From: Lunularia cruciata
Lineage: Eukaryota; Streptophyta; Marchantiopsida; Lunulariales; Lunulariaceae
Direction: 5' to 3'
Assembly (NCBI GenBank): GCA_948567375.1
Contig: OX419762.1
Coordinates: 42,389,034-42,453,033 of the forward strand
Length of the DNA: 64,000 nucleotides
Shown piece by piece: positions 9,186 to 50,487 of this stretch; position 1 is the first letter of the stretch; each line of letters starts with the position of its first letter. The position numbers and the translations under genes were made by a program. The notes beneath the pieces were generated by a model, which was not told the origin of the DNA, searched no databases, and saw only the letters and a program-made list of their open reading frames with translations.

Positions 9186-12072
9186 ATGGAGCTCGCTTCT
9201 TTAGATTTGCTGGAGAGCGGTGTCGTGACAATTGCAAGTGTGGCACTTTCTTTGGCAGTGGCGATGTCCATCGTCTTGCTCGTCCAGAAGCTTGTGTTTC
9301 AGAGTGGATACAACTACCCACCTGGACATGCTGGATGGCCTGGAATTGAGAATCTCCTTTTACTGGCTGGCAAACGGCCTCACCAGGCTCTTCACGATCT
9401 CGTCCAGGTCCACGGTCTCTCTGAAACTGGGTTCCGTTCCAGTCGTTATTGTAAGTTCCGCTGATATGGCGAAAGAGGCCCTCAAGACTCAATATGCAAT
9501 GTTTGCATCTCGGGTTAGCCCGTCGGTTTTAGCCGAACTTCTTTTGTATAAAAATGATCTCATTATGGGACCACTAACTCATCACTGGCGTTTATTGAAA
9601 ACGATCTGCTCCTCAGAGTAATCGGACCCAAGCGCATTGCACAATCCAAGGTAAATTTACCTATCTTGACTTGCGTGTGGCCGCACCGGAATCGGACTTC
9701 GAATTGGATTCCTGATGCTATTGTCGAAAAAGATACCATCTCAAGTCCTGGCACCTGGATAACTTCAGAATGTGCACCGTGTTGTTTCTTCTCTTCTGAT
9801 GATTCTGGTTTGCTCAAATGAATCCTTGCAATCCGAGCACAATTGACGAATTTAAATTCGAGGTCTTCCTGAAGGAACATTAGACTGAATGGCTTCTGGT
9901 TCTCGTCGGTAGCCATATAATGACATTGGCCTGCAGTAGGATTTTCATTAGGAGTCTCATGATATGAAATATTATTCTAGTGTGATCACTGCCAGATATT
10001 CCATGTGGGGTCTATATTGTGCGATGAATCTATAGCTGCGACTGCATCGTATGGATGTGGGTACTCGCCTGTGGGGATCATGACAGTAGCCGACCGTGTA
10101 CTGATCTGAATAGACCGACAGCATTCTCTCGAATATCTGACATTTTTAATCTGCGATTAACATTCAGGAGGCTAGTCTTTTCAAGGGCAAGGGCCCCAAT
10201 TTCGGCCCACATTTATTTGATGGTTCAGACCGTCTTCTATTATCTCATAAGTAATAAACTTTTTGAAATGACAGCTAGAGACTGTATTAGATGCAAGTTG
10301 GTCGGTCCATCCGCATGCCCTTGCCATGGAATATCAATCGGGAGTAGTTCTGCTGAGGTAACAGTGTGGCAGCGGATCACACGCTATGGAAGGATACTTA
10401 TATTGGGGCATGCTCATGAAATCCAGTGATACACGTTTTATTGTGTCTGATCTGCTCCTGTGTACCACACAATCATTATTTCGCTTCGAATTGCATTCAA
10501 GATCTGTAGGAAGGATTCGCTCCAGCTAACGACTAGCATGTAAGTCTGAATAAACAGCGTTGTTTGAACCAGCGAATAAACTCTCACAACTGTTCAACTT
10601 CGGGGATTGGGTTCACAGGTTTAAGGCACTGCTATCCTGTGGGTTGTTTCCAGAACATAAGCACTGATCGCATACTCATCTCGGTACTGCAGGTCATAAG
10701 GAGAGAAGAGACGATGAGAGCGATAAACGGCCTGCTGGGAAGATCTCAGGGTGAGAAACTTGAAGATATGTATTTGGCTGTGAGTGCGGTGAACTTTGAC
10801 CACACTTGCCGACTCCTGTTTGGACCGGGATATTACGAAGGCTCTTCGCTCACTGCATCTGATGCTGAAACCATTCCGCTTCTAGTGAGAGGTGTAGGCA
10901 GCAGGAGGATTAACATACCGGGTGAAATGTTCCCATACTTGAGGTGGTTGGATGTTGGTGGGGCCGAAGCCTATTTGAAAAGCACCCACAAACAGTTTGA
11001 CGACTTCTTACACAGAATTATGGAGAACCACCGCAACCAACGCGCCAAGAATCCTGATGGTGACAATTCAGACTTTTTAAGTGTGTTGTTGTCGATTCAA
11101 GAGAGCAAAGATGAACCTACTATAAATGATGTGGATATCAAAGCCATGCTGCTGGTAAGAATTGAACGTTACATCGCAGTACCTTTATGGAAAACAATGT
11201 CTTCTTACTTTCCCATTCAACAGCCTCATGTTTCATCTGATTGATCTGCAGAGGTTATGTTGCTTTGTGGATTCAAATCCAATTGAATCCATGTTTCTCA
11301 GTCACATGATCTTTCTAGAATACCTAGTATAGCGTCTCTGGCAAGCTGCCGTATAAACCGAATAATTAAAGAGTTTCAACCTTGAAGTGACGTTTGACAG
11401 CTCCTATTTGCTTATATGGCAGGATATGCTTATCGGTGGGATTGAGTCAATTGTGAGCACTGTGCTGTTTGCTCTTGCCGAGACGATAAAGAATCCAGAT
11501 ATCATGCAGAAGCTTGTCTCCGAATTGGATGCTGTTGTTGGTAAGCAAAGACTATTGGATGAATCGGATATTCCTGACCTCAAGTACCTGAGGGCATTAG
11601 TCAATGAAAACTTCCGTTACCATCCCGCAGCGCCGCTGCTGGTACCTCACGTACCACCAAGGATGCAAAAGTTGCTGGATATGACATCCCAAAAAGCCCT
11701 CAGGTGTTTGTAAATATACACTCAATCCAACGGAATCCAGCGCTATACGAAGATCCATTGCGTTTTGATCCAAGCAGGTCTCTGGAATCCCCTGTAGACA
11801 CTAAAGGCCAAGACTTCGGACTCTTGCCCTTTGGATCAGGTAGAAGAATGTGCGTAGGCATGAACATTGGCAAGCAGATGGTAAAGTATACTCTAGTGCA
11901 GTTTGTCCACTCTCTTGAGTTCCATCTTCCCCCGGTGATGAAACCAGAATATGTAGACGTCACTGAGAAATTTGGGCGGACAAGTTCCTTGGATACCCCG
12001 CTTCGACTTGCTCTCACTCATCGATTGCCTAAAGAACTCTATAACATCAAGTTGCTGCACCAACGTCCCTAA
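9186..12072 (+). pseudogene. Cytochrome P450 pseudogene 2 (CYP71 clan), all exons present
   Basis: Three exons: 9,186-9,650, 10,693-11,154 and 11,423-12,072, with GT-AG introns of about 1,042 and 268 bp. The second intron sits just before the I-helix, the conserved CYP71-clan position. The ATG at 9,186 opens with a hydrophobic anchor (VALSLAVAMSIVLLVQKLV) followed by the YNYPPG hinge. Exon 3 has the ExxR helix (ENFR), an FDPSR motif, and an intact heme loop (FGSGRRMCVG, near 11,831-11,860). The I-helix reads GGIES, with Ser where Thr is usual. Breaks: an 8-bp deletion after VHG in exon 1 (about 9,413), an in-frame TAA plus a 1-bp loss near the end of exon 1 (about 9,618), and a 1-bp loss near 11,653. 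Without these it would encode about 528 residues, normal for the family. It is the least damaged P450 here, but not functional as read. Confidence 0.88.
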
Positions 12073-20406: not shown

Positions 20407-20656
20407 CGCCAAATTCAAGTACAACACCAAGGTAGGAATTTCAGATTAGGTTGTTTGGCAACTCTGAGTAAGACACCTAAGAATAGTCAGTCCCAAGATG
20501 GAAAGTTTGTTGAGAAGGTAGCCATAGAGCAAATTTGGAAGGGAGATGAGTCCCAAGATGGGAACATTTGCCAAGAAGGCAACCATGGAGTAAGCTTGGA
20601 AGAGAGATGAGTCTCTAGAAGGGAAGTTTGTTAATGAAGCAGCCATAGAGCAAGCT

Positions 20657-22133
20657 TTGGAGGAAGATAAGTATGTATTCGCGGTGTGGATCAAGCCGAT
20701 TGCACAAGAACAATCTGAGGAGGGCCAAGTGCCGCATCAAGCAATGGTTGATCGGATAGTTCAAGAATTTGCAAATGTGTTTCCGGATGATCTACCAAAG
20801 GGATTACCCTTTGATCGAGGTATGCCCTTCAAGATCGAGTTATTGCCAGGGAGTACTCCAATGAGTAGACCAATCTATCGGCTCTCATCAAAGGAGTTAG
20901 AGGAGTTGCAAACAACACTTACAGAGTTGTTGGAGAAGGATTTCATACGACATAATACCTCTCCTTGGGGAACACCGGTACTATTTGTTCCAAAGAAGGA
21001 TGGAGGACTTCGTTTCTATATTGATTATTGTGGACTCAATAAGCAAAGCGAGAAGAATGCATATTCCTTGCCTCGGATCGATGACGTGCTTGATCAACTA
21101 AGTGGGGCACGCTACTTTTCCAAGCTGGATCTTTGTAGCGGTTATTGGCAAATTCCTATTGAAGGAGAGGATGTGCAAAAGACTACTTTTCGCACAAGGT
21201 ATAGACATTTGGAGTGGAGAGTTCTACCTTTCGGACTCACTAATGCTCCAGTAGTCTTCATGGATCAGATGCATCGGGTGTTGGAGGGACTATTGGATTG
21301 GTCTGTGGTGGTGTTCTTAGATGATATCTTAATCTATAGCAAGAGAGAGACAAAACACATGAATCATGTGCGAGAAGTCCTAAGACGACTATGATAGTGG
21401 AAATTTTACTGCAAGAAGTCAAAGTGTGCTTTTTGGTAGAAGGAGGTTACCTTTTTGGGTCATAAGATCTCATCAGAAGGGATCAAGATGGAAGAAGAGA
21501 AGATCAAGGCCATTACTGATTGGCCTACCCCGAAGGATGCTACAAAAGTACGAGCATTCAATGGATTGGCCAGTTTTTACCGACGGTTCATCCACTATTA
21601 TGCTCACGTGGCTGCACCATTGACTGACCTCTTGGGAAAGAACTTGAGCTTCCAGTCGACCACCAAGCATGAAGAAGCATTCCAGAAGTTAAAGCATATG
21701 GTGTCTTTGAGACCTATTCTTCAACCATATGATCTTCAATTACCTTGTGTGGTTGATTTTGATGCTTCTAACTTTGCAATTGGAGTTGTGTTGCAACAAG
21801 AATTTCCAGATGGACTACATCCTATTGCCTTTGTGTCTCGCCAACTAAATACAACTGAAAGAAATTACTCTACTCGAGATCGGGAACAACTTGCAATGGT
21901 ATATGCCACCAAGGTATGGAGGCATTATCTCTTGGGGAAACAAGTGATCATGCAAATTGATCACAAGCCATTGTTGCAGACCTTACACTTGGAGCACATG
22001 AAGAGTCGGCATCATCGATGGGAAGAGCAACTCCAATTGTTTGACATCAAACTTGAGTATGAACCAGGTCGGTTCTATGTCATCCCCGATGCTCTATCAC
22101 GACGACCTGATTTGAAGGATCTTTGTAATACCA
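20657..22133 (+). pseudogene. G1 reverse transcriptase and RNase H (5' half of pol)
   Basis: RT motifs in order: [39 protein letters not shown] (first catalytic Asp), LPFGLTNAP, and the FLDD box at 21,314-21,325. A TGA at 21,392 and a stop near 21,438 interrupt the same frame, which resumes with FLGHKISSEGIKM. RNase H follows with its acidic residues (VDFDASNFAIG, REQLAMV, IDHKPL) and ends ALSRRPDLKDL. At 22,129-22,133 the target duplication ATCTT begins and G2 interrupts; the frame continues at 28,705. Confidence 0.9.
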
Positions 22134-22828
22134 AGAGCTAGCAATATGATCTAGATGTGAAATTTGGTTTGGTAACATCTAGAATGATGTTATACATGAT
22201 GGTCAAAATAGATAAGATAGAAGTATCACCAAAAGAGTACTTCTACTAATAGGGCAGAAACCAAAATAGACTTGAGAACCTTAGAACCAATAGCTAGACA
22301 TATGATTTAAAGGTGAGAATTGGTTTGGTAACATCTGGAAGGATGTTACACATGATGGACTAAACAAATCAGAAAGAGGTATCACCAAAAGGGGACTTCT
22401 ACTAATAGAGTAGGAACCGAAATATGCCTGAAATCTTTGAAGGCAATTTCGGAGGCCTAAACAAATGAATTAGGCCTCAAAAATGTGCAGACCCCCCCCC
22501 CCTTCTTTCCCCCCTAAACAGCTTTCCAATGGTACCTTACGTGATTCTGAGATTCCTACAGGAAGATTCCCTAAAAGATTCCCTCCAGTCAAAGCTTGTT
22601 TGACCAACCAGATAGGACCTAGACCAAACATGTCACCCATCCAAGTAAATAATCCAAGGGTGGAGCTTGCTGACATGTCACCTATCTATGTCCCTAATCC
22701 TATGGTAGAGCTTCCTTGGAGGAGATCCTCTTCGTCTATATAATAAAGAGAAGGTGCTCCCTTGGGGCATCAATTATTTGAGTGTGCAAACTGTGTTTTC
22801 TCTCTTCTCTTGTCCTTAGAGTATAACA
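22134..22828 (+). repeat. G2 5' LTR
   Basis: TG...CA ended, about 695 bp. It lacks roughly 55-60 bp present in the 3' LTR next to a poly-C tract (22,491-22,520). TATATAATAAAG near 22,737 is a plausible TATA region. Its HSE-like content is much lower than in G1. Confidence 0.92.
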
Positions 22829-24960: not shown

Positions 24961-25044
24961 GGGGTTAAAGAAAAATCACACAGGTAGAAACTGACTCTAT
25001 ATGTCGTAGGGACGGCAATTGTCTATAAGACCGATAGATGTTTT

Positions 25045-27938
25045 ATGGGTCTAATAAGAGAAGTCCAGAGTGCACAACTCGATGGAAAAATTCCTGAGAA
25101 ATTGAAGGATGTGGTACATGAGTTTCAAGATGTCTTTTCCAATGATCTACCCTCAAGATTACCACCAAAAAGGCAAGTAGATCACAAAATTGAGACACTT
25201 CCGAGGAAGACGCCTCCTTGTAAGGCCCCATATCGCCTATCACCTCATGAGTTGGAGGAGTGTAAGACTCAAATTGAGGAGATGATGCAGAAAAGGTTCA
25301 TCCAACCTAGCATGTCACCATATGGGGCCCCTATCTTGTTTGTGAAGAAGAAAGATGGTACAATGTGCATGTGCATTGACTATCGGGGTCTCAATCAGCA
25401 AACAATGAAGAACAAATACCCCTTACCTCGCATGGATGACTTGTTTGATCAACTCCATGGAGCAAGATACTTCACCAAACTGGACTTGCAGACCGGTTAC
25501 AATCAAATCCAAATTGTAGAGGACGATGTGTACAAAACTACCTTTCGAACCAAGTATGGCCACTTTGAGTACCTTGTGATACCTTTTGGCCTCACCAATG
25601 CACCTGCCACTTTCATGAGTCTAATGAATGACATATTTTGTCCATACTTGGATAAGTTTGTTATCATCTTCTTGGATGATATCTTAGTAGCACGATGACA
25701 GAACACAAGCAACATCTACGAAAGGTCCTCCAGATTCTAAGACTGAATCAGTTGTATGCCAAAATCTCAAAGTGTGAGTTTGGCAAGTCTGAAGTAGACT
25801 ACTTGGGACATAAAGTAAGTGCAGAGGGCATTCAAGTATTGACAGATAAAATAGAGGTCATTCAAAGATGGAGTGCCCCAAAAGATCAGACTCAACTTAA
25901 GAGCTTCTTGGGGTTGACGGGATTCTATCATAGATTTGTCAAGGACTTCTCCAAGGTTGCACAGCCTTTAACGGCACTACTTGGCAAGGGGAAGAAGTGG
26001 ACATGGGGAATTGCACAAGAATTGGCCTTTCAAGAATTGAAGGCCGCCTTGCTACATGCACCAATCTTGAAGTGGTATGACCCAAAACGTCCAATCAAGT
26101 TGGCTATAGATGCATCAGGCGTAGCAATAAGAGCAGTCCTACAACAAGAGTGGCATGACGGATGGCATCCAATTGCATATTTCTCTCGAAAGTTGTTACC
26201 GGTAGAGCGCAACTACCACACTACAGAACAAGAAGAGTTGGCCATCATTCTAGCAACCAAGCATTGGAAGCACTACTTGGGCGAGAAGGCATTTGTAGTA
26301 GAGACAGACCACAAGCCTCTAGTCTACCTCAAGACGCAGAAGGATCTATCTCATCGCCAAATTTGGTGGGCAGAGTGGCAACAATGCTTCAACATGACAA
26401 TCACCCATGTTGAAGGTAAGAAGCAACTTGCAGATGCATTCACTCGCATGCCAATGGCCAACAACTTGGTGGCAGAGGTTAAGATTAACCCTGAATTCTG
26501 GCAAGAGATTCTGGCTGCGACAAAAACTGATCCACAGATTGTAAAAGCACAATCATCCAAAGGTGTCACCAACACCCAAGGACTCACCTTTTGGGATGGC
26601 AGATTATGGATCCCAAATGTCCCAGAATTATGCACCACCATTCTAGCGGAATGTCATGATTCGCCCATTGTAGCTCATGTCGGAGTGGACAAGACCTTGG
26701 ATGCAATCAAGCGCCATTACTATTGGCCCAAGATGAGCAATGACGTGATGGACTATGTGCGTAGCTGCCTACTTTGTCAACAGAACAAAGCTTCTAATCA
26801 AGCACCTACAAGGCTCCTTCAACCTCTCCCCACTCCTACCCAACGTTGGGAACAAGTGAGTATGGATCTCGTCTGTGAATTACCCAAGACCACCTCAGGG
26901 TTTGACTCCATTGTGGTCTTTGTGGACCGGCTCACCAAAATGATTCATGTACGCCCTACCACCAAGGAGGTGACCGCTCCACAACTAGCTCAATTATACT
27001 TAGATGCAGTCTTTGTTCACCATGGCTTGTCTAGAGTACTCATCACCGATAGAGGCACCCAATTCACCTGTTTGTTTTGGCGAACACTCTTTGGTTTCTT
27101 CAAAACCAAGTTGGCCATGTCCACAGCTTACCACCCACAAACAGATGGCCAAATAGAGCAGGCTAATCGCACGATTGAAGACATGTGACGCGGCTTCACC
27201 TTAGAAGAGCGAGAAAGGTGCGACACCCTACTCCCATTGGTGGAATTTGCTTACAACAATTCAGTGAATGCATCCACCGAGGTCACTCCGTTCTTCCTCA
27301 TGTATGGTGAGCATCCCTTCACACCTTCTAGCTTGATGAAGATCCGTCCAGTGGCTACCAAGGTCGATGCAATCAACACATTTGTTTCTAGAATCCAACA
27401 AGGTGTGGAGAGCGCCAAGCACAAATTACAAATTGTGCAAAATTGACAGAAGCAGTATGCTGATGCACACCGTCGGCACATGGAGTTCAATGTTGGGGAT
27501 CAAGTGTGGCTATCGACAACCAAACTCACATTAGTTGGACCTCGTAAGCTCAGACCTCGTTTTATTGGGCCTTTCTTGATTCTTTGTCGCATCAGCGCTG
27601 TGGCCTATCACCTTGAGCTACCACCACACATGAAGATCCATCCAGTGTTCCATGTCTCCCTACTATGCAGATATGCTCCCCAATCAGGCCAGGGTCATTC
27701 CACACCGGCCATTCGACCTTGTCCGACACTCATTGATGGCATAGAGGAATATGAAGTGGAGCGGATTCTCCAAAAATGCATGTGTGGTACTCGCCACCCG
27801 CGGGTGGACTATCTAGTACAATGGAAAGGTTACCCCCTCTATGAAGCAACCTGGGAGCCCGCTGCCAATTTGGCACATGCACTGGTGTTGGTGCAAGCAT
27901 TTGAGCAACAATTGCACAACAAGGACATTGCATCTTAA
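25045..27938 (+). pseudogene. G2 RT, RNase H, integrase, chromodomain
   Basis: RT has [13 protein letters not shown] and the FLDD box (25,669-25,680). A frameshift follows directly, with the frame resuming at about 25,695. RNase H shows [19 protein letters not shown] and VETDHKPL. Integrase has the HHCC zinc site ([14 protein letters not shown]) and DDE residues in [14 protein letters not shown] and DGQIEQANR, followed by stops at 27,186 (TGA) and 27,443 (TGA). A C-terminal chromodomain (EEYEVERIL, VDYLVQWKGYP, EATWEPAANL) ends at 27,936. The chromodomain marks a chromovirus and in the family binds methylated histone H3. Confidence 0.92.
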
Positions 27939-40762: not shown

Positions 40763-40869
40763 TGTCGTGCGTATATACATCGCTACACAACATACATCGC
40801 TGTCAACATCATACACTATAGAAGCACAACTCACACATAAGTCATACATAGACTCTAAAGTGCCACAAT
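40763..40869. repeat. M1 107-bp block, outer copy
   Basis: Begins TGTCGTGCGTATATACATC and ends GTGCCACAAT. It is nearly identical to 41,320-41,426, so the left LTR is bracketed by two direct copies. The right end of M1 has none. Confidence 0.85.
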
Positions 40870-41317
40870 AATTAGATTGCTTACCACTCTCAACTCAACT
40901 CAACTCAAATCAGTACTTGATCTGTCACTCTATGAACTGCCAACAATTGGGCACTGATTACAGTCAAGCCACACCCACTCAAGCATAGAGAATCCAGGTA
41001 ACGCTCGCCGGCCTCTGTCCACCGTAGCTAGGAACTCAAAGGCTCAACATCAGAGAAGTGAGCTCTCTGGAGCTCACTTCAAAACTAAACCCCCTTGGAC
41101 TCGAGCTACCACTGAAACCCTAACGGTCCCGCTGACAGCACACTCGATGGTGCAAACGGTGCAAAGTGACAGTGGGCCCCACCGTGAAGTTAGTACCCCA
41201 AACACAAATCTAACCGTCAAAAAGTAGTCCTTGAGAAACTGTTGAAATAACTCTAACTACTGTCACTGGAACTCTAGTGCCAGAGCATCTAGATGCGGAA
41301 CTACAAATGGAGTGACA
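40869..41317 (-). repeat. M1 left terminal repeat (3' LTR core)
   Basis: About 449 bp matching 50,041-50,482 throughout. In element orientation it starts TGTCACTCCATTTG. A purine-rich AGGAGGGCG lies outside the inner 107-bp block (about 41,427-41,437), consistent with a polypurine tract. Confidence 0.85.
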
Positions 41318-41319
41318 AC

Positions 41320-41426
41320 TGTCGTGCATATATACATCACTACACAACATACATCGTTGTCAACATCATACACTATAGAAGCACAACTCACACATAAGTC
41401 ATACATAGACTCTAAAGTGCCACAAT
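41320..41426. repeat. M1 107-bp block, inner copy
   Basis: Second direct copy of the 40,763 block, between the left LTR core and the internal region. Differences from the outer copy are few. Confidence 0.85.
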
Positions 41427-41593
41427 CGCCCTCCTAGCTGGCGGTTAGGTCCCTCTAACTCCAGATAGCCATCTACTCTAAGTATATGGTACACCCTCTA
41501 ATGGGAAAAGATCAGGAGGCCGGGTGCTATGGAGCCCCATCGTTAGTTGCCTGTCTGCAATCTATACCATATAAAGAATGAACTAGCTATAGG

Positions 41594-43000
41594 TCAAGTA
41601 CATCTAGGACATAACCACTGTCCCTGAGGAACCACCGTGAGGGGAGGAGTCATACATGCCATATGCCATCCTCTCGAACAGCTATCACACACTAACATAG
41701 TAGCAGCTCCACCAGAAGAGCCACATAACATACACCTTAAGCCTGCACGTACAAGTGCTAAGCTTGGGTCCATAGTACCATCAATGTTTGGAAGGTGGCA
41801 TGGCACACAATTGCGCACATGATCCTTCCAAACAACACCATCACGTCCTTCTAACACAAGGACTCCAGATGGCAAAACCTCACGCACTCTCAAGATAGTG
41901 CGGCCTGTAGAAACATCAAGTGTCGTCGGTGATGTCTGCTATAGATATACATAGTCGCCTGGATGAAATTGACGGATCGAGGGTCTATAACCTCCTCCTT
42001 GAATGGTAGCATATCGTAAAGTATCTCTATGCTGAGCAATCGCCAAGTTCTCAAAGGCCATCGGCATCACTCTCTGAAAGATCTCTGCCCACTGAGAACA
42101 TGCACTCATCCATACATCGGGGTCATCCAAGTCCAAAACTACAATAGCATCTCGACGAATGGCTGTAGGTAAATCTGGATCTCGTCCATAGAGTAGAAAG
42201 TATGGAGAGAAGGATGCTAAGGAGGCTTGCCGGCTGAACCGATAGCCCATGGCCAACCAAGGTAACTGGAGATCCCAATCTCCCAAGTGGCCTCTCTGCA
42301 AACCATACTTTCGCAATCCTCTCTTCACCATCTGAACCACTCTCTCTGCTAAGCCATCTGCCTTAGGGTGATCTCGGGATGTCGTACGATGATCAATCAA
42401 AGCCTTGTCACACAAGACCTGAAACTCCCCCAAGAACTCTATACCCTGATCAGTCAAAACCTCAGCTGGTGCACCAAAATGACTAAGAACTCGATCCAGG
42501 AACGAGTAAGTTGTCCCTTCACTAGACTTGTCAGGAAGTGCCACCAACTCAATCCACTTGGAGAAGTGCTCCACCATCACCAAAACATACCAATGATGTC
42601 TCACAGTCAGCGGTAAACGTCCGGCAAAGTCCAAACTCCAACAATAACCCAATCCCATGATAGGTAATGGGTGTAACTGTGGCGTATGAGCATTGAATGA
42701 TGCTCTAACTCCGTCACAAACCACACATCTGGCAACAAACTATTGTACCTCGGTCTGCATACCGCGCCACCAATAATGACTCTGGAGTAAGCTATGTGTA
42801 TGCTTTACTCCAAAATGTCCTAGCTCCTCATGAGCATGACGGACCAACTGTGGTCTCTGGGATGGAAGTGGTATTACTCGCACTCTACCATCCTCCCATA
42901 CATGCAAAAGGTGTCTACCCTCCAATCTGAACCGTCTGGCTTGCTGAAGAACATGGTCTCTCTCCTTGGCCCCAACTGTGCCACCTACAACACCAGTGCA
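41594..43000 (-). pseudogene. M1 integrase with C-terminal PHD finger
   Basis: Zinc-binding N-terminus HAHEELGHFGVKH followed, after a TAG at 42,740, by CVVCDG (HHCC). The DDE core is complete: WSLDFAG (Asp at 42,629-42,631), EVLTDQGIEF and ADGLAERVVQ. A C-terminal SH3-like part (FHPGDYVYL, then a TAG at 41,939, then VLEGRDGVVWKDHVRN) leads into a PHD finger ending at a natural-looking TGA (41,594-41,596). Ty3 integrases insert the cDNA into chromatin, and chromoviruses use a chromodomain at this position. Here a PHD finger takes that place. Confidence 0.9.
41597..41734 (-). other. PHD finger domain of M1 integrase
   Basis: Cys4-His-Cys3 zinc ligands with spacing C-x2-C-x11-C-x2-C-x4-H-x2-C-x14-C-x2-C, plus the usual Trp before the last Cys pair (QWLCPRC). 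Fragments: CMLCGSS, LVCDSC, GWHMAC. All eight ligands are present. PHD fingers read the histone H3 tail (methylated or unmodified Lys4). What this one binds is not known. Confidence 0.92.
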
Positions 43001-43229: not shown

Positions 43230-44460
43230 GGGTTTCTACTCAACCCATCTGCATCACGGTTCACCACTCCAGGTCTGTGAACAACCATGAAATCATACTC
43301 CTGTAAAATCAGAGCCCATCATGCAAGCTTCCCTGAAAGCTTGTCGGACTCCATCAACCACTTCAGCGGCTGATGATCAGTGATGAGAGAGAAGGGGTTA
43401 CCAAATAGGTAACATCATAAATGTGCTACTGCCCAAACTGCTGCCAAGCACTCTCCCTCATATGAACTATACTTCGCCTCCGCTGAATTGTTGGAGCGAC
43501 TAGCATAGGCCACCACAAACTTCTTCTCCTCATCATCATGTTGGGTGAGCACCGCTCCAAGCCCCAACATACTCCAATCAGTATGAACCTGAAATGGTCG
43601 TCCCCTGATCGGTCTCCTCAAAATAGGAGCAGATGTCAACCTCTCCTTGAGCTCTACAAAAGCTCTCTCCTGCTCATCTCCCCAACACTACTCCTGTGTA
43701 AGCTTGGTCAGCTTCATCAAGGCCTTGGCAATGGCACTAAATCCTCTAACATAGCGACGATAGAAGTTCGCCAACCCAAGGAATGCTCACACTCTGCTCA
43801 CATCCGTAGGCTAAAGGATACGTGCAATAGCCTCTACCTTGGTCTGCTGAACACCAAGTCCTCCGGGGTAGATAGTGTGACCCAAATACTCAACCTGCTC
43901 GTGGAAGAACCTACACTTCCCAGGATGTAATCTGAGTCCATGAGATCTCAACCTCTCAAACACCTCCAACAACTGTCTCTCATGCTCCTCCACAGTAGTG
44001 CTATAAACCAAAATGTCATCAATATAGCAGTGAGCAAAATCCAATCCAGCTAGGATCCTATCCATGACCCTCTGGAACTCAGCAGGAGCGTTCTTCAACC
44101 CAAATGGTAAGGACGGTAATCTCCACACATCCGCCTATCTGTATAGTTGCCATGCATATCCTTCTTGGCTGGCATCACTATATCTGATGCATAATCTCCA
44201 TGTGAAATCTCCACCAAACCAGTCTCAAAAAGGTCACTACTCCGGCTCTAAATCAATGTCCTCTCCATATCACTATATCAATAAGAACGTTGGAAAACTG
44301 GTGTGTCGCTAGTCAGCTCAATCCGTATACCAAGTCCCTTCAGAGCACCCAAATCCTTCATACTAAAGGCAAAACAACTCGTGTGACTCCTCAAGAACCT
44401 CCAAACCCTCCGTCTTTCCTCTCTAGTAAGCTTGGGTCCAAGATCTGGCTCCCAAGTATC
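43230..44460 (-). pseudogene. M1 reverse transcriptase and RNase H
   Basis: RT begins near 44,450 (EERRRVWRFLRSHTSCFAFS, IRIELTSDTPVFQR) and runs through YASDIVMPAKKD and MCGDYRP to about 44,110. The next recognisable motif is LPFGLKNAPAEF, with a change of frame, so the intervening fingers/palm part including the first catalytic Asp motif is missing. By family length about 60-65 residues are lost. The YIDD box is intact at 44,015-44,026. RNase H has HTDWSMLGLGAVL, YEGECLAAVWAV, TDHQPLKWL and NRDADGLSR. Stops lie at 44,278 and 44,248 (before the gap) and at 43,811, 43,688, 43,415 and 43,319. Confidence 0.9.
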
Positions 44461-44819
44461 CTCTGTAACTGTAGTAGGAGTGGAAGACGTACTGACTGAC
44501 TGCTACACTGGGCCCTTGGGAGCAATAGTGTCATGCTCCCGACCACTAGAGGTCCCAATCTCTGTGTGAAAAAATCCCTCCACTCTGGCTGCAAGCTCCA
44601 TACGTCCTCTGGCTGCATCCCATGTGGACCAAGGGTGTAATCCAAGTAGCCCACGCTCAACTGGATGGACTCCAAGTAGACCACTCTCCCTGGTAGCTAC
44701 TGGATGTGTCCCAAGAATACCATGTCCACTCGGTCCATCGCCCCCAACATGTGCCTGAATCGTCTCGATAGGCACAGGGCTCACAAGTGTCCAAGTGGTG
44801 ATGCCTATCAAGCGTATCC

Positions 44820-45789
44820 TACGCTGCTCTACCAAGCCAAGGCTCACAATCCAGGTCAAACAGTTCAGGTCCATAGCCTGACCTAACACCTGACGCCTAG
44901 ATGCCTCTAACATTGCTAAAACAGCGGTAATACCGGTGCAAAAACCCATCGCCCGCTCTCTCTCATCAGCGTTGGGCTCCACCAACTATTGTAACTGTGA
45001 GTCCCAAACAAGTCCAGGTCCTCCCTCTTGGAAAGCATGAGAGCCTGCAAAACTCATGAGTGTGGGAAATGCAGCTCTAGGCTGTCCAACTAGGTTCACC
45101 ATTGCCATAGGTGACCTATCAGGCACGACCACTATCTGAGACTGATGGCCAACATCCACGATATCATCAACAAGGATATGGCCTAGTCGTTGAATCCCAT
45201 CATAAGCACGTTGTAGAACCTCTCTGGGTAAGAGGTTTGTCCACCAAAGACAAAGACGATGAGCCCGTGATCCCACTCTAGCTGCATCTAACAATACAGC
45301 AGGTCCCATCCAAGAATGGACCTGATGTGTACTCGCCACCACTCTAGTGCAAGAATCACCCATCAAAGGAACGTTCTCCAAAAGGTAAGCTAGAGAAACG
45401 GATTGATGAACCTGGAGATGTTGTAATATCCGTAACATCTCCCAAAACACACCAGAACAAGGATCCTAAAGACCCAATCCTCTACCAGCACGTGTATGTC
45501 CCTGACATGGCCATCCAGAGATCACCAAGTAAATAGGCCCATGTCTCTCTAGGTCATGCACCCCTAGTAAAGAAATGTCTCCTGGTAGGGCCTTTTGGTA
45601 ATCTCTGACTGCTGACATCGGTAATAACTCCGGATACCGATAGGCCAAGTGTGCCATATGATGTAGAGAGACTCACCTAGCAGTCTCATCTCTCTCTACA
45701 TACAAGTACCTCTGTACTCGGATACCCGCGTGTAACATCGCAGCTAGTCCGGTGCTGATCCCACCAAACAACTCCAATAGGCATATCCC
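44820..45789 (-). pseudogene. M1 C5-cytosine DNA methyltransferase domain, DNMT3-like
   Basis: A SAM-dependent DNA cytosine-5 methyltransferase of about 323 residues, between protease and RT in the same frame. Motif I is LELFGGISTGL (45,745-45,777), followed by RYLYVERD with the motif II acidic residue. Motif IV is ISGWPCQGHT, whose catalytic Cys codon is TGT at 45,505-45,507. Motif VI is LLENVP (ENV at 45,370-45,378). The motif VIII region is GSRAHRLCLWWTNL. The C-terminal part (ERERAMGFCTG, SRRQVLGQAMDLNCLTW) resembles motifs IX-X of DNMT3. The order I-IV-VI-VIII-X is that of DNMT3, not the rearranged plant DRM order. Three stops break this copy (45,673 TGA, 45,466 TAG, 44,986 TAG), but every catalytic motif residue is preserved. 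Confidence 0.93.
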
Positions 45790-46159: not shown

Positions 46160-47030
46160 AGGCGACATACCCGTCCCTCACCAGACTGCCAACCGGGTCT
46201 ATAAGAGGCTATCTCCTCCCAATAGTCAATGCTGAAACCCATAGGGTATAACACTGCTCCCCCAACTAGCACATCATATGACTCAGCTATCGTTGCAATA
46301 GCCTGAGCTCTCACCACCGAGCTATCAGTTGGATGACTAGGCTGAACCTGGACAACAAGCTCTCCACATGTGATGTACTATGTTGAACCACCACCAAGAG
46401 ATGTCTGGATCTGAAATGGACACCTCTCCACATCGGTCTTCCGTAATTCCAGACCGACAACTGCAGCCTTCCCCAACATAAGGGGCTGCGCACCAGAGTC
46501 TAACAAGACTCTCTATGGTGTATAGACCTTCCTTGAAGGTCCCACCAAATAAAAAATCCCCCTCTGGTTATCCAATAGGACAACACCAGGTGTAAACCGC
46601 GCTCTCTCAAAGGCCGGTCTAGCTGGCAACTCCTCCAGTCTAGCCGCTATTGCCTGCCATAAACCACTGGTCGCTGAACGGATCCCATGCTCCTCAACCA
46701 AGTCAGCTCCACTACCAACCACCTCTGCTCTAGTAGTAGGAACTGCACCATCCCTACTCTCACACAACGTGGCAGCCAACCGGAACACTAGGGCTGGGTC
46801 AACTCCCAATGTAAACATGTCACTGGCTGAAAACAAAGGATGCCGCATAATCAGCTGAGCCGCCCCCAACATCATGCTAGACTCAGTCTGTGTAGTAGTA
46901 GGTGGTTGACTAGCAGGTAGTCCATCATGTACTCCATCACCACCTACCACACCTGCACTGGGACGTCTAGGAACCATGGATATCGTCTGCAATGCCTCAG
47001 ATAGCGTGAAAGATTGGGAAGTCTGACCTG
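46160..47030 (-). pseudogene. M1 aspartic protease region
   Basis: Pol frame opening near 47,030 (ETGQTSQSFTLSEALQ). The active-site triplet lies in VLLDSGAQPLMLGKA near 46,480-46,510. The protease C-terminal part follows as DVLVGGAVLYPMGFSIDYW. TAG stops lie at 46,513 and 46,378. About 370 bp of linker with no recognised domain (46,160-45,790) separates it from the methyltransferase. Confidence 0.8.
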
Positions 47031-47048: not shown

Positions 47049-48776
47049 CTATGGATCCAACTCCACTAATGCTCCTCTAGGCTCTGGAGCACATACTGCA
47101 CTCCTAGTCACTACTGCAGATGCATCCACCTGGGCTGCTCCGTGCATGAAGTCCAAAGCATCTCTATCACCAGCATATGAGGTGGAAGCCTCAGCACCCG
47201 AATCTGATCTCCTCTGAGCAATAGCCATACTAGCCAATCTCTGCTCCAACTGCTCAATCCGAGTAGCAATAGCTGTGTCAAAAGTAAGGGCAGGTACTGC
47301 ACCCCTACTAGGTGTAGATCCTCTACCACCACCTCTACCACCTCGTCCTCCATGAACTAGAGCTCCTCTACTACCAGCCATAGCAGCCCTACCACTCCGT
47401 AACTCCGGGTGTAGGTCAAAACACCGATCACTAGTGTGACCAAATCTGTGGCAGTGCTCACACTGCCTCTGTGTTGGCTGTGATGCACCCAAGGTATCAG
47501 GTCCACTACCCTGGGTACACTCTCTCCTATGGTGAGGTCCACCACAAGTCCAACAAGCAACACCACCACTCATTGGCTGCTGTTGACCCGAAAATGAGGG
47601 TAAGGGTCTAACTCCACTAGGCCCTCCACTCGCTCCATAGGATCTGGGCTGTCCACCCTGTCCTCAAAAACCAACTGGGAGTGGTGCACTCTACTGCACT
47701 CTAGAAGAAGTCACAGCCGTGGATGAGGTCTCCCTACCAAATCCAGATGTCACCACTCTCTCCTCCACCATATTGAGCTCAATACGCTCAGCCAAACCAA
47801 AGACTACTGCCAAAGTGGGCGAAGTAGCCTGCAACAACGTAGCATCATGAACTCTACATCGCAACTCCCTGTCCAGTATCCCATACCAAAACTGGACTGC
47901 CTGGGCCTCAATAACTCCCTGAGTGAAACTGATCAGCCGCCTCATGCGAGTGTATGCCTCGCGTAGGCTCTCTCCAGCCTTCCGCTGAAACTCCTATAAG
48001 TTCCTCAGCTTGTCAGTCCGTACTCCCTGGTAGTTCTGCTTCTAACATAGGAAGAACTCCACCATGGGGTTAAACCCCGGTACCACACCACCTCCTGCAG
48101 CGGTACCTCCACTCGTAGTAGCACTATCTCTAGCTAGTGCACCTCCACTAGCTCCACCAACACTACTCGAGCTAGAACTTGTAGGTATAGCCGATCTACT
48201 CCTGGCCACCAAACCTAAAGTGACGGAGACATAGTGTGGAGACCAATATTGTCTCCATAACTCAATCTCCTCCAAATGAGCTCTCCTGAACTCATGGTAG
48301 TCATCCATTGGCGGACCCTCCAAGTGCTGAAACAACCCCTTCCATGCCATGAAGGGTGTGAACAAAGTCGAGTTCCGCATCTGCTGCAAATCACACCAAC
48401 TATCGAACTCCTGGATGAAGTCATCCAACTCAATGGTACCCATTGTACCAGAGTAATGCCTAGGGCCTTTGGAGGCCCCATAAATCTTGTCCATGTCCCA
48501 CAACAACAGTGCGGACACACCAAGTGCACTCTCAACTGAATCAGCTCCTGTGTCAAACTCCAACTCAGAGTCAATCTCCTCCCTCACTGGGACCTGAGAT
48601 ACAGGCTGATACCGAGCACCACTCCAAGTAAACCCACTGTGTACTGTAGGGCTAACTCCTCTGGAATCTCCAAAGAACTCTGTCGGGACAAAGTAACCGC
48701 AACAGCAAACCCGAACCACCAACTGCAACCGTAAGTTGCAACCGCAAGTGCCAACACCAAGTGCCAACACCACCAA
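47049..48776 (-). pseudogene. M1 gag with two zinc-knuckle-like motifs
   Basis: Gag core near 48,500-48,200 (TIELDDFIQEFDSWCDL, FTPFMAWKGLFQHLEG), then ESLREAYTRMRRLISFTQGV. The nucleocapsid part carries a variant knuckle (CWTCGGPHHRREC) and a canonical CX2CX4HX4C knuckle (CEHCHRFGHTSDRC) near 47,430-47,475, followed by a Gly/Arg-rich stretch. Stops: 48,042 and about 47,996 (TAG), 47,691 (TAG), 47,664 (TGA). The frame ends at 47,049, just where the pol frame, related by -1, becomes open. Confidence 0.87.
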
Positions 48777-50040
48777 GCACCACCCACTAATGTAACTCTA
48801 ACCGAGATAACTACACTAGGGGAAATGGCAACCTTTAACCTACCATCATAACACGCACTCTCATGGTCTACAGGTCATCACTTCCTGCCTCACCGGAGAG
48901 AAACAAAGGTAGTTTGACTGGTCATCACTCCAGCCTCACCACCGAGAGCACACTAGAGCACCAACGCTCAAAAGTCAGGGCACCTCACACAAACGTGGTG
49001 CACAAACAGGAAGCAGAGAATGGAGGGGGTCCAATCACAAGAAATCTAAACAAAAACCCTCCATCTCATAACACAACATGGGACTGACTCTGCCACCATT
49101 TGGCATTTGACATAAGAGTAGTTTGTATCTAAGTTCTAAGCTACCAAGATCACCAAGAATGGGATCAAACTGCCTCTCCTAGCCAAAACTACATGTGTAT
49201 AGATAACAGTGGCACAGTCACTAGAACAACAAGTGAGGGTGGACCAGTTAGCTAGGGCACCAGTCTAGGAACAAGATATCTAGGGGTCAAACCCTGTTGC
49301 GCACAATCTAGCAGGAAAGGTAGATTTTGCCAACCAATGACCAAGATCTACTCTAAACTAGCTAGCCTCACGCCAGCAAGCTGGCTTGCTGACCCTTCTA
49401 GGCCTTCGTAGCCTCTCATAGCCCACAGCCCTATGCCTCAAAGCGCCGAAATTCAGCCAAATGAGGCCTTTCTTGTTGCCACTTCGAACCTCCTCCAAAA
49501 TTGGCAAAACTTCTCCAAATTTGTGAAAGTCCTCCAAACTAGCAAAACTCCTCCAAATCTGGCCAAACAGCAAAAACTCCTCCAATTCTGGCGTAAATCT
49601 GATGTAAATCTTACATAAAATCTGACGTAAACTCTAAAGATGGATGTCTGCCAAATCCCCCGCTAACTTTCCACTCGAGCCAAATTGACAAAACAGGTTT
49701 TTCCAAATCACAATTTCATGAGAAAAGCTTCCCAACTCCACCTTCAATTTGACTTTCTGAGCCCAACTCGCAGCAAATTGGTCATGCTTTCACCTCCTGA
49801 GCTCAAAATCACAACACTGCTCAAAAATTGCTCCTTCTTTGCTCAAAATTTGGCCAGCACTTCCGCACACCATCCGTCTAACTGCCAAATCTGCATCAAC
49901 TGAACGAGCTTGTGCACACTAGGGAAACACAGAACTTGAATCGAGCTACCACGATCCACCGAGCTTGGAGATACCACCAACACTCAAAGTCCTACACTCA
50001 AAGTCCTGCACCCAATTTCTCCATGACTTCACTTCTCTGA
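48777..50040 (-). other. M1 leader between right LTR and gag, no gene
   Basis: About 1.26 kb without convincing coding sequence. Two candidate primer sites are seen in element orientation. One is TGGTGGCAGAGTCAG at 49,084-49,098 (12 of 15 bases match the initiator-Met site). The other is a weaker TACATCAGAG abutting the LTR at about 50,030-50,043. Which one is used affects where the 5' LTR really ends. Confidence 0.5.
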
Positions 50041-50482
50041 TGTAATCAGATTGCTTACCACTCTCAACTCAGATCAGTACTTGATTTGTCACTCTATGAA
50101 CTGCCAACAACTGTGCACTAATTACAGTCAACCCACACCCACTCAAGCATAGAGAATCCAGGTGACGCTCACCGGCCTCTGTCCACCATAGCCAGGAACT
50201 CGAAGTCTCAACATCAGAGAAGTGAGCTCTCTAGAGCTCACTTCAAAACTATACCCCCCTGGACTCGAGCTACCATTGAAACCCTAACGGTCCCACTAAC
50301 GGCACACTCGATGGTGTGAACGGTGCAAAGTGATGGTGGGCCCTACCGTGAAGTCAGTACCCCAAACACAAAATCTAACCATCAAAAAGTAGTCCTTGAG
50401 AAATTGCTGAAATAACTCTAACTATTGTCATTGGAACTCCAGTGCCAGAGCATCTAGATGCGGAACTACAAATGGCGTGACA
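50041..50482 (-). repeat. M1 right terminal repeat (5' LTR core)
   Basis: About 442 bp, TG...CA ended in element orientation (TGTCACGCC to GATTACA). It matches 40,869-41,317 with scattered differences. No 107-bp block flanks it. Confidence 0.87.
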
Positions 50483-50487
50483 CATGA

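What the first reader, a model, noticed from the sequence alone, without database searches (positions are those of the whole stretch)
44820..45789. A Ty3/gypsy retrotransposon carrying its own DNMT3-like DNA methyltransferase
Between protease and reverse transcriptase, in the pol frame, lies a complete-looking C5-cytosine methyltransferase: motif I LELFGGISTGL, motif IV PCQG, motif VI ENV, a motif VIII region GSRAHR and DNMT3-style C-terminal motifs. The motif order is canonical, so it is not a captured plant DRM. Retrotransposon DNMTs are known from dinoflagellates and charophyte algae, where self-methylation of new copies has been proposed. A land-plant Ty3 element with this domain would extend that to a new lineage, and might trade expression for persistence by methylating its own insertions.
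Basis: partly seen in the sequence, partly recalled or inferred. Interest (0 to 1): 0.95.

Follow-up and report, generated by a model that had tools for sequence, protein, structure and literature searches.

The report
Plant retrotransposon with DNA methylase
A jumping element present in many copies in this plant genome carries its own DNA-methylating enzyme, of a kind so far reported from algae, and its odd end structure suggests that it passes through a DNA circle before it inserts itself.

Summary
On the minus strand, window 50482-40763 is a Ty3-type element with a C5-cytosine methyltransferase at 45789-44845. This copy is dead and the oldest of 17 copies dated, but sister copies hold the domain in open frames of up to 1428 codons. 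The modelled domain matches DNMT3A/3B best (E 3.6e-20). It is no one-off: 12 of 12 copies picked by their RT-integrase frame, blind to the DNMT, carry it.

New here: (1) the DNMT closes a gag-protease-DNMT frame that ends at a UAG present in 27 of 27 copies, before RT; (2) the integrase ends in a PHD finger; (3) the repeats are split (A-coding-B-A-B) although the ends are TG...CA with 4-bp target duplications. The junctions suggest that integrase opens a circular cDNA at an internal palindrome.

Relatives with the DNMT occur in Marchantia, Sphagnum and chlorophyte algae; a Klebsormidium integrase falls in the same clade, so it most likely belongs with KnitGypsy-Dnmt3 (2018). Trees fit one capture and one move within pol, on thin cellular sampling. 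That the DNMT methylates the element's own DNA is inferred, not shown; CpG depletion did not support it.

The parts
50483..50486 (.). 5' flank CATG; the 3' flank is CAGG (40762-40759): target duplication with one mismatch in this old copy
   Evidence: 13 of 16 assessable copies have an exact 4-bp duplication
50044..50482 (-). repeat A1, starts TGTCACGCC
50032..50043 (-). ACATCAGAGAAG directly after A1: place of a primer-binding site; weakly like one; lies in a short hairpin TCTGAT-TAC-ATCAGA across the A1 boundary
   Evidence: role inferred
47799..48491 (-). gag core
   Evidence: 95.7% to L009; frame read
47364..47516 (-). two Cys/His knuckles of gag (CWTCGGPHHRREC, CEHCHRFGHTSDRC)
   Evidence: named by eye
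46180..46449 (-). aspartic protease region (LLDSGAQPLMLGK in L009); Pfam does not call it in L009, but calls Asp_protease_2 at 1.6e-4, below cut-off, in relative P0013
44845..45789 (-). DNMT3-like C5-cytosine methyltransferase, broken here by three in-frame stops
44503..44505 (-). in-frame TAG that closes the gag-protease-DNMT frame; followed by CAG CC in the common form
   Evidence: TAG in 27 of 27 copies
43865..44349 (-). reverse transcriptase (two aligned pieces; an internal part is missing in this copy)
   Evidence: RVT_1 in L009
43265..43714 (-). RNase H
   Evidence: RT_RNaseH in L009
41915..42902 (-). DDE integrase (H2C2 + rve)
41597..41743 (-). PHD finger at the integrase C-terminus
   Evidence: (PF00628 6.3e-11 in L009)
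41427..41435 (-). short purine-rich stretch directly before B1: place of a polypurine tract
   Evidence: role inferred
41320..41426 (-). repeat B1, ends GCACGACA
41314..41323 (-). B1/A2 junction, GACAGTTGTC here; perfect palindrome GACAGCTGTC in 9 of 21 copies, same length in 21 of 21; its two middle bases are absent at the outer ends
40870..41317 (-). repeat A2
40763..40869 (-). repeat B2, ends ...GACA

Best explanation
The window holds a dead copy of a high-copy Ty3-type element that encodes gag-protease-DNMT, then a UAG, then RT-RNase H-integrase-PHD. It belongs to a green-lineage clade of PHD-integrase elements that took up a DNMT3-type enzyme once (inferred from trees) and later moved it, in the streptophyte branch, from between RNase H and integrase to between protease and RT. 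Because the DNMT precedes the UAG, it is probably made in gag amounts and packaged (inferred). Reverse transcription probably makes a linear BA-coding-BA DNA whose ends are joined; integrase then opens the circle (or dimer) at the internal B/A palindrome and inserts A-coding-B-A-B with a 4-bp duplication (inferred from junctions). The DNMT most likely methylates this unintegrated cDNA before or during integration, so that a new copy is not seen as foreign or is tolerated (not shown). The PHD finger probably helps choose the chromatin target (inferred by analogy with chromodomains).
For: Identity. Not a one-off: 31 of 35 loci fetched from the PF00145 list are this family (chosen by the DNMT), and 12 of 12 copies chosen by RT-integrase carry it. 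Selection: variants shared by 3 or more copies show fewer amino-acid changes than context-matched shuffles in DNMT (ratio 0.58; 1 of 300 shuffles as low), like RT 0.53, gag 0.50, PR 0.31; singletons are near neutral (DNMT 0.88). Stop: TAG 27 of 27; the RT frame starts right behind it in 42 of 47 places. Layout A-coding-B-A-B complete in 17 copies, B-A-B in 21 of 21 where visible. TG...CA and exact 4-bp duplications in 13 of 16 assessable copies. A2/B2 junction carries extra bases in 3 of 21 copies: ACATC (the five bases that follow A1), A (the first of them), G (the base before B1); the B1/A2 core has no length change in 21 of 21. Retroviral integrases of HIV-1 and foamy virus cut the palindromic 2-LTR junction in vitro (PMC1905944, passages). 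Trees.
Against: No direct evidence of methylation by this enzyme. CpG observed/expected is not lower than in neighbours. LTR differences are enriched at CG (85 at 22 sites) and also at CHG (81 at 35 sites; CHH 45 at 141), which host enzymes would also give. In PMC5890265 the K. nitens domain gave no methylation in yeast, which its authors call inconclusive. Only 7 of 27 copies lack stops in the DNMT. The IN-domain selection signal was weaker (0.68, 32 of 300 shuffles as low) and the PR-DNMT linker showed none (1.92, 13 variants). No RNA stem beyond shuffles at the UAG (z 0.3). The A2/B2 junction is the same length in 18 of 21 copies, so it is not very variable; L020 and L026 lack a target duplication. 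The primer-binding site does not start with TGG.
Confidence: 0.5

Rival explanations
1. The DNMT acts on something other than the element's own DNA: host promoters, rival elements, or RNA.
For: Purifying selection fits any function that helps the element. PMC5890265 (part 4 of 7) raises RNA methylation for LINE elements.
Against: Position in the gag-protease frame favours packaging with the element's nucleic acid; best structural matches are the DNA enzymes DNMT3A/3B. Neither excludes it.
Confidence: 0.25
2. The split repeats arise without a circle: a DIRS-like templated scheme, or template switching that makes a linear dimer or a tandem end, cut by integrase.
For: The same A-coding-B-A-B layout is diagnostic of tyrosine-recombinase elements (PMC4157794, passages); 18 of 21 A2/B2 junctions have one length.
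Against: No tyrosine recombinase; rve integrase present; 4-bp duplications in 13 of 16 copies, which those elements do not make; junction inserts copy the bases beside the cDNA ends. A linear dimer joined end to end remains possible.
Confidence: 0.3
3. The enzyme is a brake: self-methylation lowers expression and spares the host, so copies persist.
For: Copies decay at CG and CHG, as silenced methylated DNA does; PMC5890265 also offers this reading.
Against: The host's own methylases would give the same decay; the host has DNMT3-like and DRM-like genes.
Confidence: 0.2
4. A passenger: a captured domain with no use.
For: 20 of 27 copies have a stop inside it.
Against: Shared variants are constrained as in RT; the domain persists across bryophytes and green algae; motif IV PCQ kept in 26 of 27, ENV in 27 of 27 copies.
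Confidence: 0.04

Closest known systems
KnitGypsy-Dnmt3 of Klebsormidium nitens (de Mendoza et al. 2018, PMC5890265)
   Same: Ty3/Gypsy domains, Dnmt3-type unrearranged DNMT, repeats described in the Fig. 4 legend as arranged like DIRS (A-coding-B-A-B by the Fig. 1 legend), purifying selection. A K. nitens protein (P0144, integrase-PHD) lies in the same integrase clade.
   Different: Land-plant host; DNMT in the gag-protease frame before a conserved UAG, where the paper puts it in the Pol ORF.
Green-algal and metagenomic RT-DNMT-integrase-PHD polyproteins (e.g. P0077 Monoraphidium neglectum, P0111 Cymbomonas)
   Same: Same element-DNMT clade (100/98 support against three cellular enzymes), same PHD integrase in most.
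   Different: DNMT sits between RNase H and integrase (85 of 249 proteins scanned show RT-DNMT-IN-PHD).
SymbioDIRS-Dnmt3 and DIRS/PAT elements
   Same: Split direct repeats; a methyltransferase in the element.
   Different: They use a tyrosine recombinase and make no target duplication (PMC4157794 passages); here a DDE integrase and 4-bp duplications.
Chromoviruses (plant Ty3 with integrase chromodomain)
   Same: A histone-reader-type domain at the integrase C-terminus.
   Different: PHD finger instead of chromodomain.

Membership tests
KnitGypsy-Dnmt3-like elements | Ty3/Gypsy RT-RNase H-rve integrase | tested here: met
   (L009 second frame)
KnitGypsy-Dnmt3-like elements | unrearranged Dnmt3-type DNMT | tested here: met
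KnitGypsy-Dnmt3-like elements | DIRS-like repeat layout A-coding-B-A-B | tested here: met
   complete in 17 copies, none of the 21 informative copies differs
KnitGypsy-Dnmt3-like elements | DNMT inside the Pol polyprotein ORF | tested here: not met
   TAG between DNMT and RT in 27 of 27 copies; the domain is in the gag-protease frame
KnitGypsy-Dnmt3-like elements | common descent with the K. nitens element | tested here: inconclusive
   K. nitens integrase P0144 in the same clade of 38 (SH-aLRT 96, quick tree); its DNMT was not among the hits
DNMT3 family | catalytic motifs I, IV, VI, VIII, IX, X in canonical order | tested here: met
DNMT3 family | closer to DNMT3 than to DRM, DNMT1, DNMT2 or bacterial enzymes | tested here: met
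   (DNMT3A 8.5e-9; HaeIII 0.0043; DRM2 0.2; DNMT2 0.29); by tree only against one DNMT3A, one host DNMT3 and one host DRM, where it forms its own long branch
DNMT3 family | de novo CG methylation | not testable with these tools
   needs an assay
DRM | motifs VI-X before I-V | tested here: not met
   canonical order in L009
DIRS/PAT (tyrosine-recombinase) elements | split direct repeats | tested here: met
DIRS/PAT (tyrosine-recombinase) elements | tyrosine recombinase, no target duplication | tested here: not met
   rve integrase; 4-bp duplications in 13 of 16 assessable copies
Chromoviruses | chromodomain at the integrase C-terminus | tested here: not met
   Pfam gives PHD, no chromodomain

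The most novel reading that the evidence does not exclude
This clade is a new mode of LTR-element integration: the ends made by reverse transcription are not the ends that integrase uses; the cDNA is closed end to end, and integrase opens it at an internal palindrome, so that DIRS-like split repeats arose with a DDE integrase. The DNMT, made with gag, marks that circular DNA. This would explain why methyltransferases were captured repeatedly by retroelements with split repeats (DIRS/PAT, SymbioDIRS, this clade): a DNA circle in the nucleus needs a self mark.
Probability: 0.3. Interest if true: 0.9.

Novelty: new variant of a known kind. Interest (0 to 1): 0.78.

Why it matters
Retrotransposons that carry the host's own silencing enzyme were reported from dinoflagellates and a charophyte. 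Finding the gene constrained and in many copies in a land plant, with relatives in Marchantia, a genetic model, makes the question of what it is for testable where methylation mutants and transformation exist. The repeat and junction evidence also gives a concrete, checkable reading of how a DDE integrase can work with split repeats, which the 2018 legend notes but (in the parts I read) does not explain. [quoted passage not shown] for bryophytes this is contradicted here.

Tried and rejected
Considered and rejected: captured plant DRM (order canonical; DNMT3 matches far better); chance motif match (Pfam, PDB and model agree); one-off capture; tyrosine-recombinase element.

Led nowhere: three scans of viral contigs for relatives with DNA (nothing; two loci at 27-28% identity, L052 and L053, not followed; none), so the repeat layout of algal relatives could not be checked. 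RNA fold at the UAG not different from shuffles in two copies. CpG observed/expected showed no element-specific depletion. No tRNA and no Rfam match in the window, so no primer tRNA could be named from it.

Limits: copies were taken from the DNMT hit list, so their having the DNMT is by construction; only the 12 are blind to it (ranks 2-14 less one, rank 9, skipped because its DNMT was already on the list). 'Shared' variants can include recurrent C-to-T changes. L009 served as reference there, so variants are not polarised. The DNMT tree has only three cellular rows; the integrase tree is a quick one with a midpoint root, and 2 of 37 rows of the classes without DNMT between RT and IN (P0181, P0134) fall outside the clade. 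Copy numbers are lower bounds: one search scored 123 of 2161 candidates, one search scored 47 of 66047.

Papers: PMC5890265 parts 1-4 of 7 and one word search; passages only of PMC12477816, PMC11105155, PMC12344493, PMC6453930, PMC6338049, PMC9033089, PMC4157794, PMC1905944, PMC5784723; PMC6317226 a word search without hits. Others were seen as listings. No paper on such an element in a land plant turned up in searches of a library that lacks most subscription journals; the listing (PMC12857756) was not opened. PMC12344493 says 'streptophytes' for known cases and cites the 2018 paper.

Full report
What was checked. The window lies in a 566-Mb genome of 74 contigs. The element is on the minus strand. 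One search found two repeats about 9.2 kb apart and a third, 114-base repeat on either side of the 3' one. Translation shows gag with two Cys/His knuckles, a protease-like stretch, the reported DNMT motifs, RT, RNase H, integrase and a PHD finger, all broken by stops and frame changes. The window's DNMT pieces alone match no Pfam family.

Intact relatives in the same genome. A PF00145 search of the genome gave 123 scored places out of 2161 candidates, all over the cut-off. Among the 35 loci fetched from that list (L001-L035), two are host genes (L001 DNMT3-like, L002 DRM-like), two (L003, L004) were not classified and 31 are this family. L009 and L010 have an open first frame of 1428 codons, L011 1292, L013 1209, L014 1142. 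In L009 Pfam finds PF00145 (1.9e-7) and, in the second frame, RVT_1, RNase H, H2C2, rve and PHD. Seven of 27 aligned copies have no stop in the DNMT. Because these copies were picked by the DNMT, I also searched with the second frame: 47 places were scored out of 66047 candidates, all 98% or more identical. Of ranks 2 to 14, all but rank 9 (already on the DNMT list) were read at the expected DNMT place: 12 of 12 carry it, at 98-99% identity.

What the enzyme is. By sequence the nearest solved structures are DNMT3A and DNMT3B (8.5e-9 to 1e-5), then HaeIII (0.0043), DRM2 (0.2) and DNMT2 (0.29). AlphaFold2 models the L009 domain with pLDDT 89.6 and pTM 0.90, and the 50 best Foldseek rows are DNMT3A, 3B or 3C entries. 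Across 27 copies PCQ is kept in 26, ENV in 27, ERAMGF in 25, LGQAMD in 26, the RxR of motif VIII as RLR in 20 and FGGISTG in 17.

Stop between DNMT and RT. A TAG at the same codon follows the DNMT frame in 27 of 27 copies, while other stops are scattered. In 42 of 47 places the second frame begins right behind it (1037 codons). The first ATG behind it is 47 codons on in the eight copies listed. So the DNMT is read with gag and protease, and RT needs readthrough or re-initiation. Which of the two is not known; two copies folded at the site show no structure beyond shuffles.

Selection. Against context-matched random placement, variants shared by 3 or more of 26 copies relative to L009 show too few amino-acid changes in DNMT (29 plus 3 stops against 39 expected, 25 silent against 18; ratio 0.58, 1 of 300 shuffles as low), gag 0.50, PR 0.31, RT 0.53, RNase H 0.43; IN is weaker (0.68, P 0.107), the linker before the DNMT shows none (1.92, 13 variants), and PHD has only 4 variants. 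Singletons are near neutral (DNMT 0.88, P 0.22). The DNMT is thus kept by selection about as RT is. Recurrent C-to-T change can blur the shared class.

Age and decay. A1 and A2 of one copy are alike at insertion. In 17 copies they differ by 0.0023 (L026) to 0.1167 (the window copy, the oldest). Differences fall at CG (85, with 22 such sites in one repeat), CHG (81, 35 sites), CHH (45, 141 sites) and 50 are transversions: these copies have been methylated at CG and CHG. Host enzymes suffice to explain it. CpG observed/expected (0.46-0.47 in two copies, 0.41 in the window copy) is not below other Ty3 remnants of the window (0.41) or its remainder (0.44), which counts against an extra, element-specific CG depletion.

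Split repeats and integration. The layout A-coding-B-A-B is complete in 17 copies and B-A-B is seen in 21 of 21 where the stretch allows. The outer ends are TG and CA. Exact 4-bp duplications flank 13 of 16 assessable copies; the window copy has three of four bases; L020 and L026 have none; L018 could not be judged. This is DDE-integrase chemistry on ends that lie inside the reverse-transcription LTR: the bases after A1 and before B1 stand where PBS and PPT would be, which makes BA the LTR in the usual sense. The B1/A2 junction is GACA-GC-TGTC, palindromic, with two bases absent from the outer ends, and keeps its length in 21 of 21 copies (perfect in 9). The A2/B2 junction has extra bases in 3 of 21: ACATC in L026, A in L034, G in L029, which repeat the bases beside the presumed cDNA ends. 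The simplest reading is that cDNA ends are joined anew in each cycle and that integrase then cuts the internal palindrome. HIV-1 and foamy virus integrases do cut palindromic two-LTR junctions in vitro (PMC1905944 passages). The weak points: 18 of 21 joints have one length, a linear dimer would do as well as a circle, and the PBS is not a good match to a tRNA end.

Kin. The DNMT search found 36 proteins: 15 named Marchantia polymorpha (37-98% of the query covered, 56-67% identity), one Sphagnum fallax (47%) and 20 without a species name. Searching with a metagenome relative found 113, among them Monoraphidium neglectum and Cymbomonas tetramitiformis. Searching with integrase-PHD found 324, of which 120 were listed, with Klebsormidium nitens (55%), Riccia sorocarpa (86%), Marchantia (69%) and two Volvox species. 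Over the 249 proteins held, 85 show RT-DNMT-IN-PHD, 9 RT-DNMT-IN and 6 RT-DNMT; 9 show DNMT before RT; 23 show the DNMT alone in a first frame; the rest are partial or lack one of the domains. In the DNMT tree (65 rows) the 62 element enzymes stand against three cellular ones (100/98) and the 29 rows with DNMT before RT or in a first frame lie in one clade of 30 (98/93). In the integrase tree (79 rows) 35 of 37 rows without DNMT between RT and IN lie in one clade of 38 (96), with the Klebsormidium protein in it; P0181 and P0134 fall outside. One capture followed by one move of the domain fits both, but three cellular rows cannot exclude a second source. P0140, a Trinity transcript with RT-IN-PHD, shows that a near relative is transcribed in some organism.

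Comparison with print. PMC5890265 (parts 1-4 of 7 read) reports KnitGypsy-Dnmt3 with Dnmt3 in Pol and DIRS-like repeats; SymbioDIRS-Dnmt3 domains methylate CG in yeast, while the K. nitens domain gave no activity, called inconclusive. Its text has no Marchantia, liverwort, moss or PHD. [quoted passage not shown] PMC5784723 (passage) counts five DNA methyltransferases in Marchantia, so the element-borne ones were not among them. Searches are listed under Tried and rejected.

Reading. Shown: the domain, its place, its constancy in the family, the stop, the PHD finger, the repeats, the target duplications, constraint on the domain. Inferred: packaging with gag, circle or dimer intermediate, self-methylation of cDNA, chromatin targeting by PHD. 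I hold identity at about 0.97, the joined-cDNA integration at about 0.6, and self-methylation of the cDNA at about 0.4; 0.5 is given for the explanation as a whole.

Noticed in passing
window 20594-22141 and 24988-27188, + strand: Two other Ty3-type pol remnants; the translated pieces show RT, RNase H and integrase but no DNMT.
   Followed up: partly
window 10537-11244, + strand: A frame with a weak cytochrome P450 match (PF00067, 6.6e-4, below cut-off).
   Followed up: no
L015 (G000:C12:42776000-42785900): Next to a partial copy of this family lies another Ty3 element with a single 1611-codon gag-pol frame and no DNMT seen in it.
   Followed up: no
L030: A family copy inserted into the A repeat of another copy, with TGGT duplicated: nested insertion.
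   Followed up: partly
L001 and L002: The host has its own DNMT3-like gene (unrearranged, PDB best DNMT3A/3C) and a DRM-like gene (1.6e-103 to DRM2).
   Followed up: yes
window 50060-50030 and the same place in sister copies: Hairpin TCTGAT-TAC-ATCAGA across the A1/internal boundary; could serve self-priming, unexplained.
   Followed up: no
L052 and L053: Two IMG/VR contigs with 27-28% matches to the DNMT domain.
   Followed up: no
algal relatives such as P0037-P0116 (alignment A2): In the class with DNMT between RT and integrase the usual PC of motif IV reads EC (GWECQD) in the majority line, the Cys being invariant.
   Followed up: no
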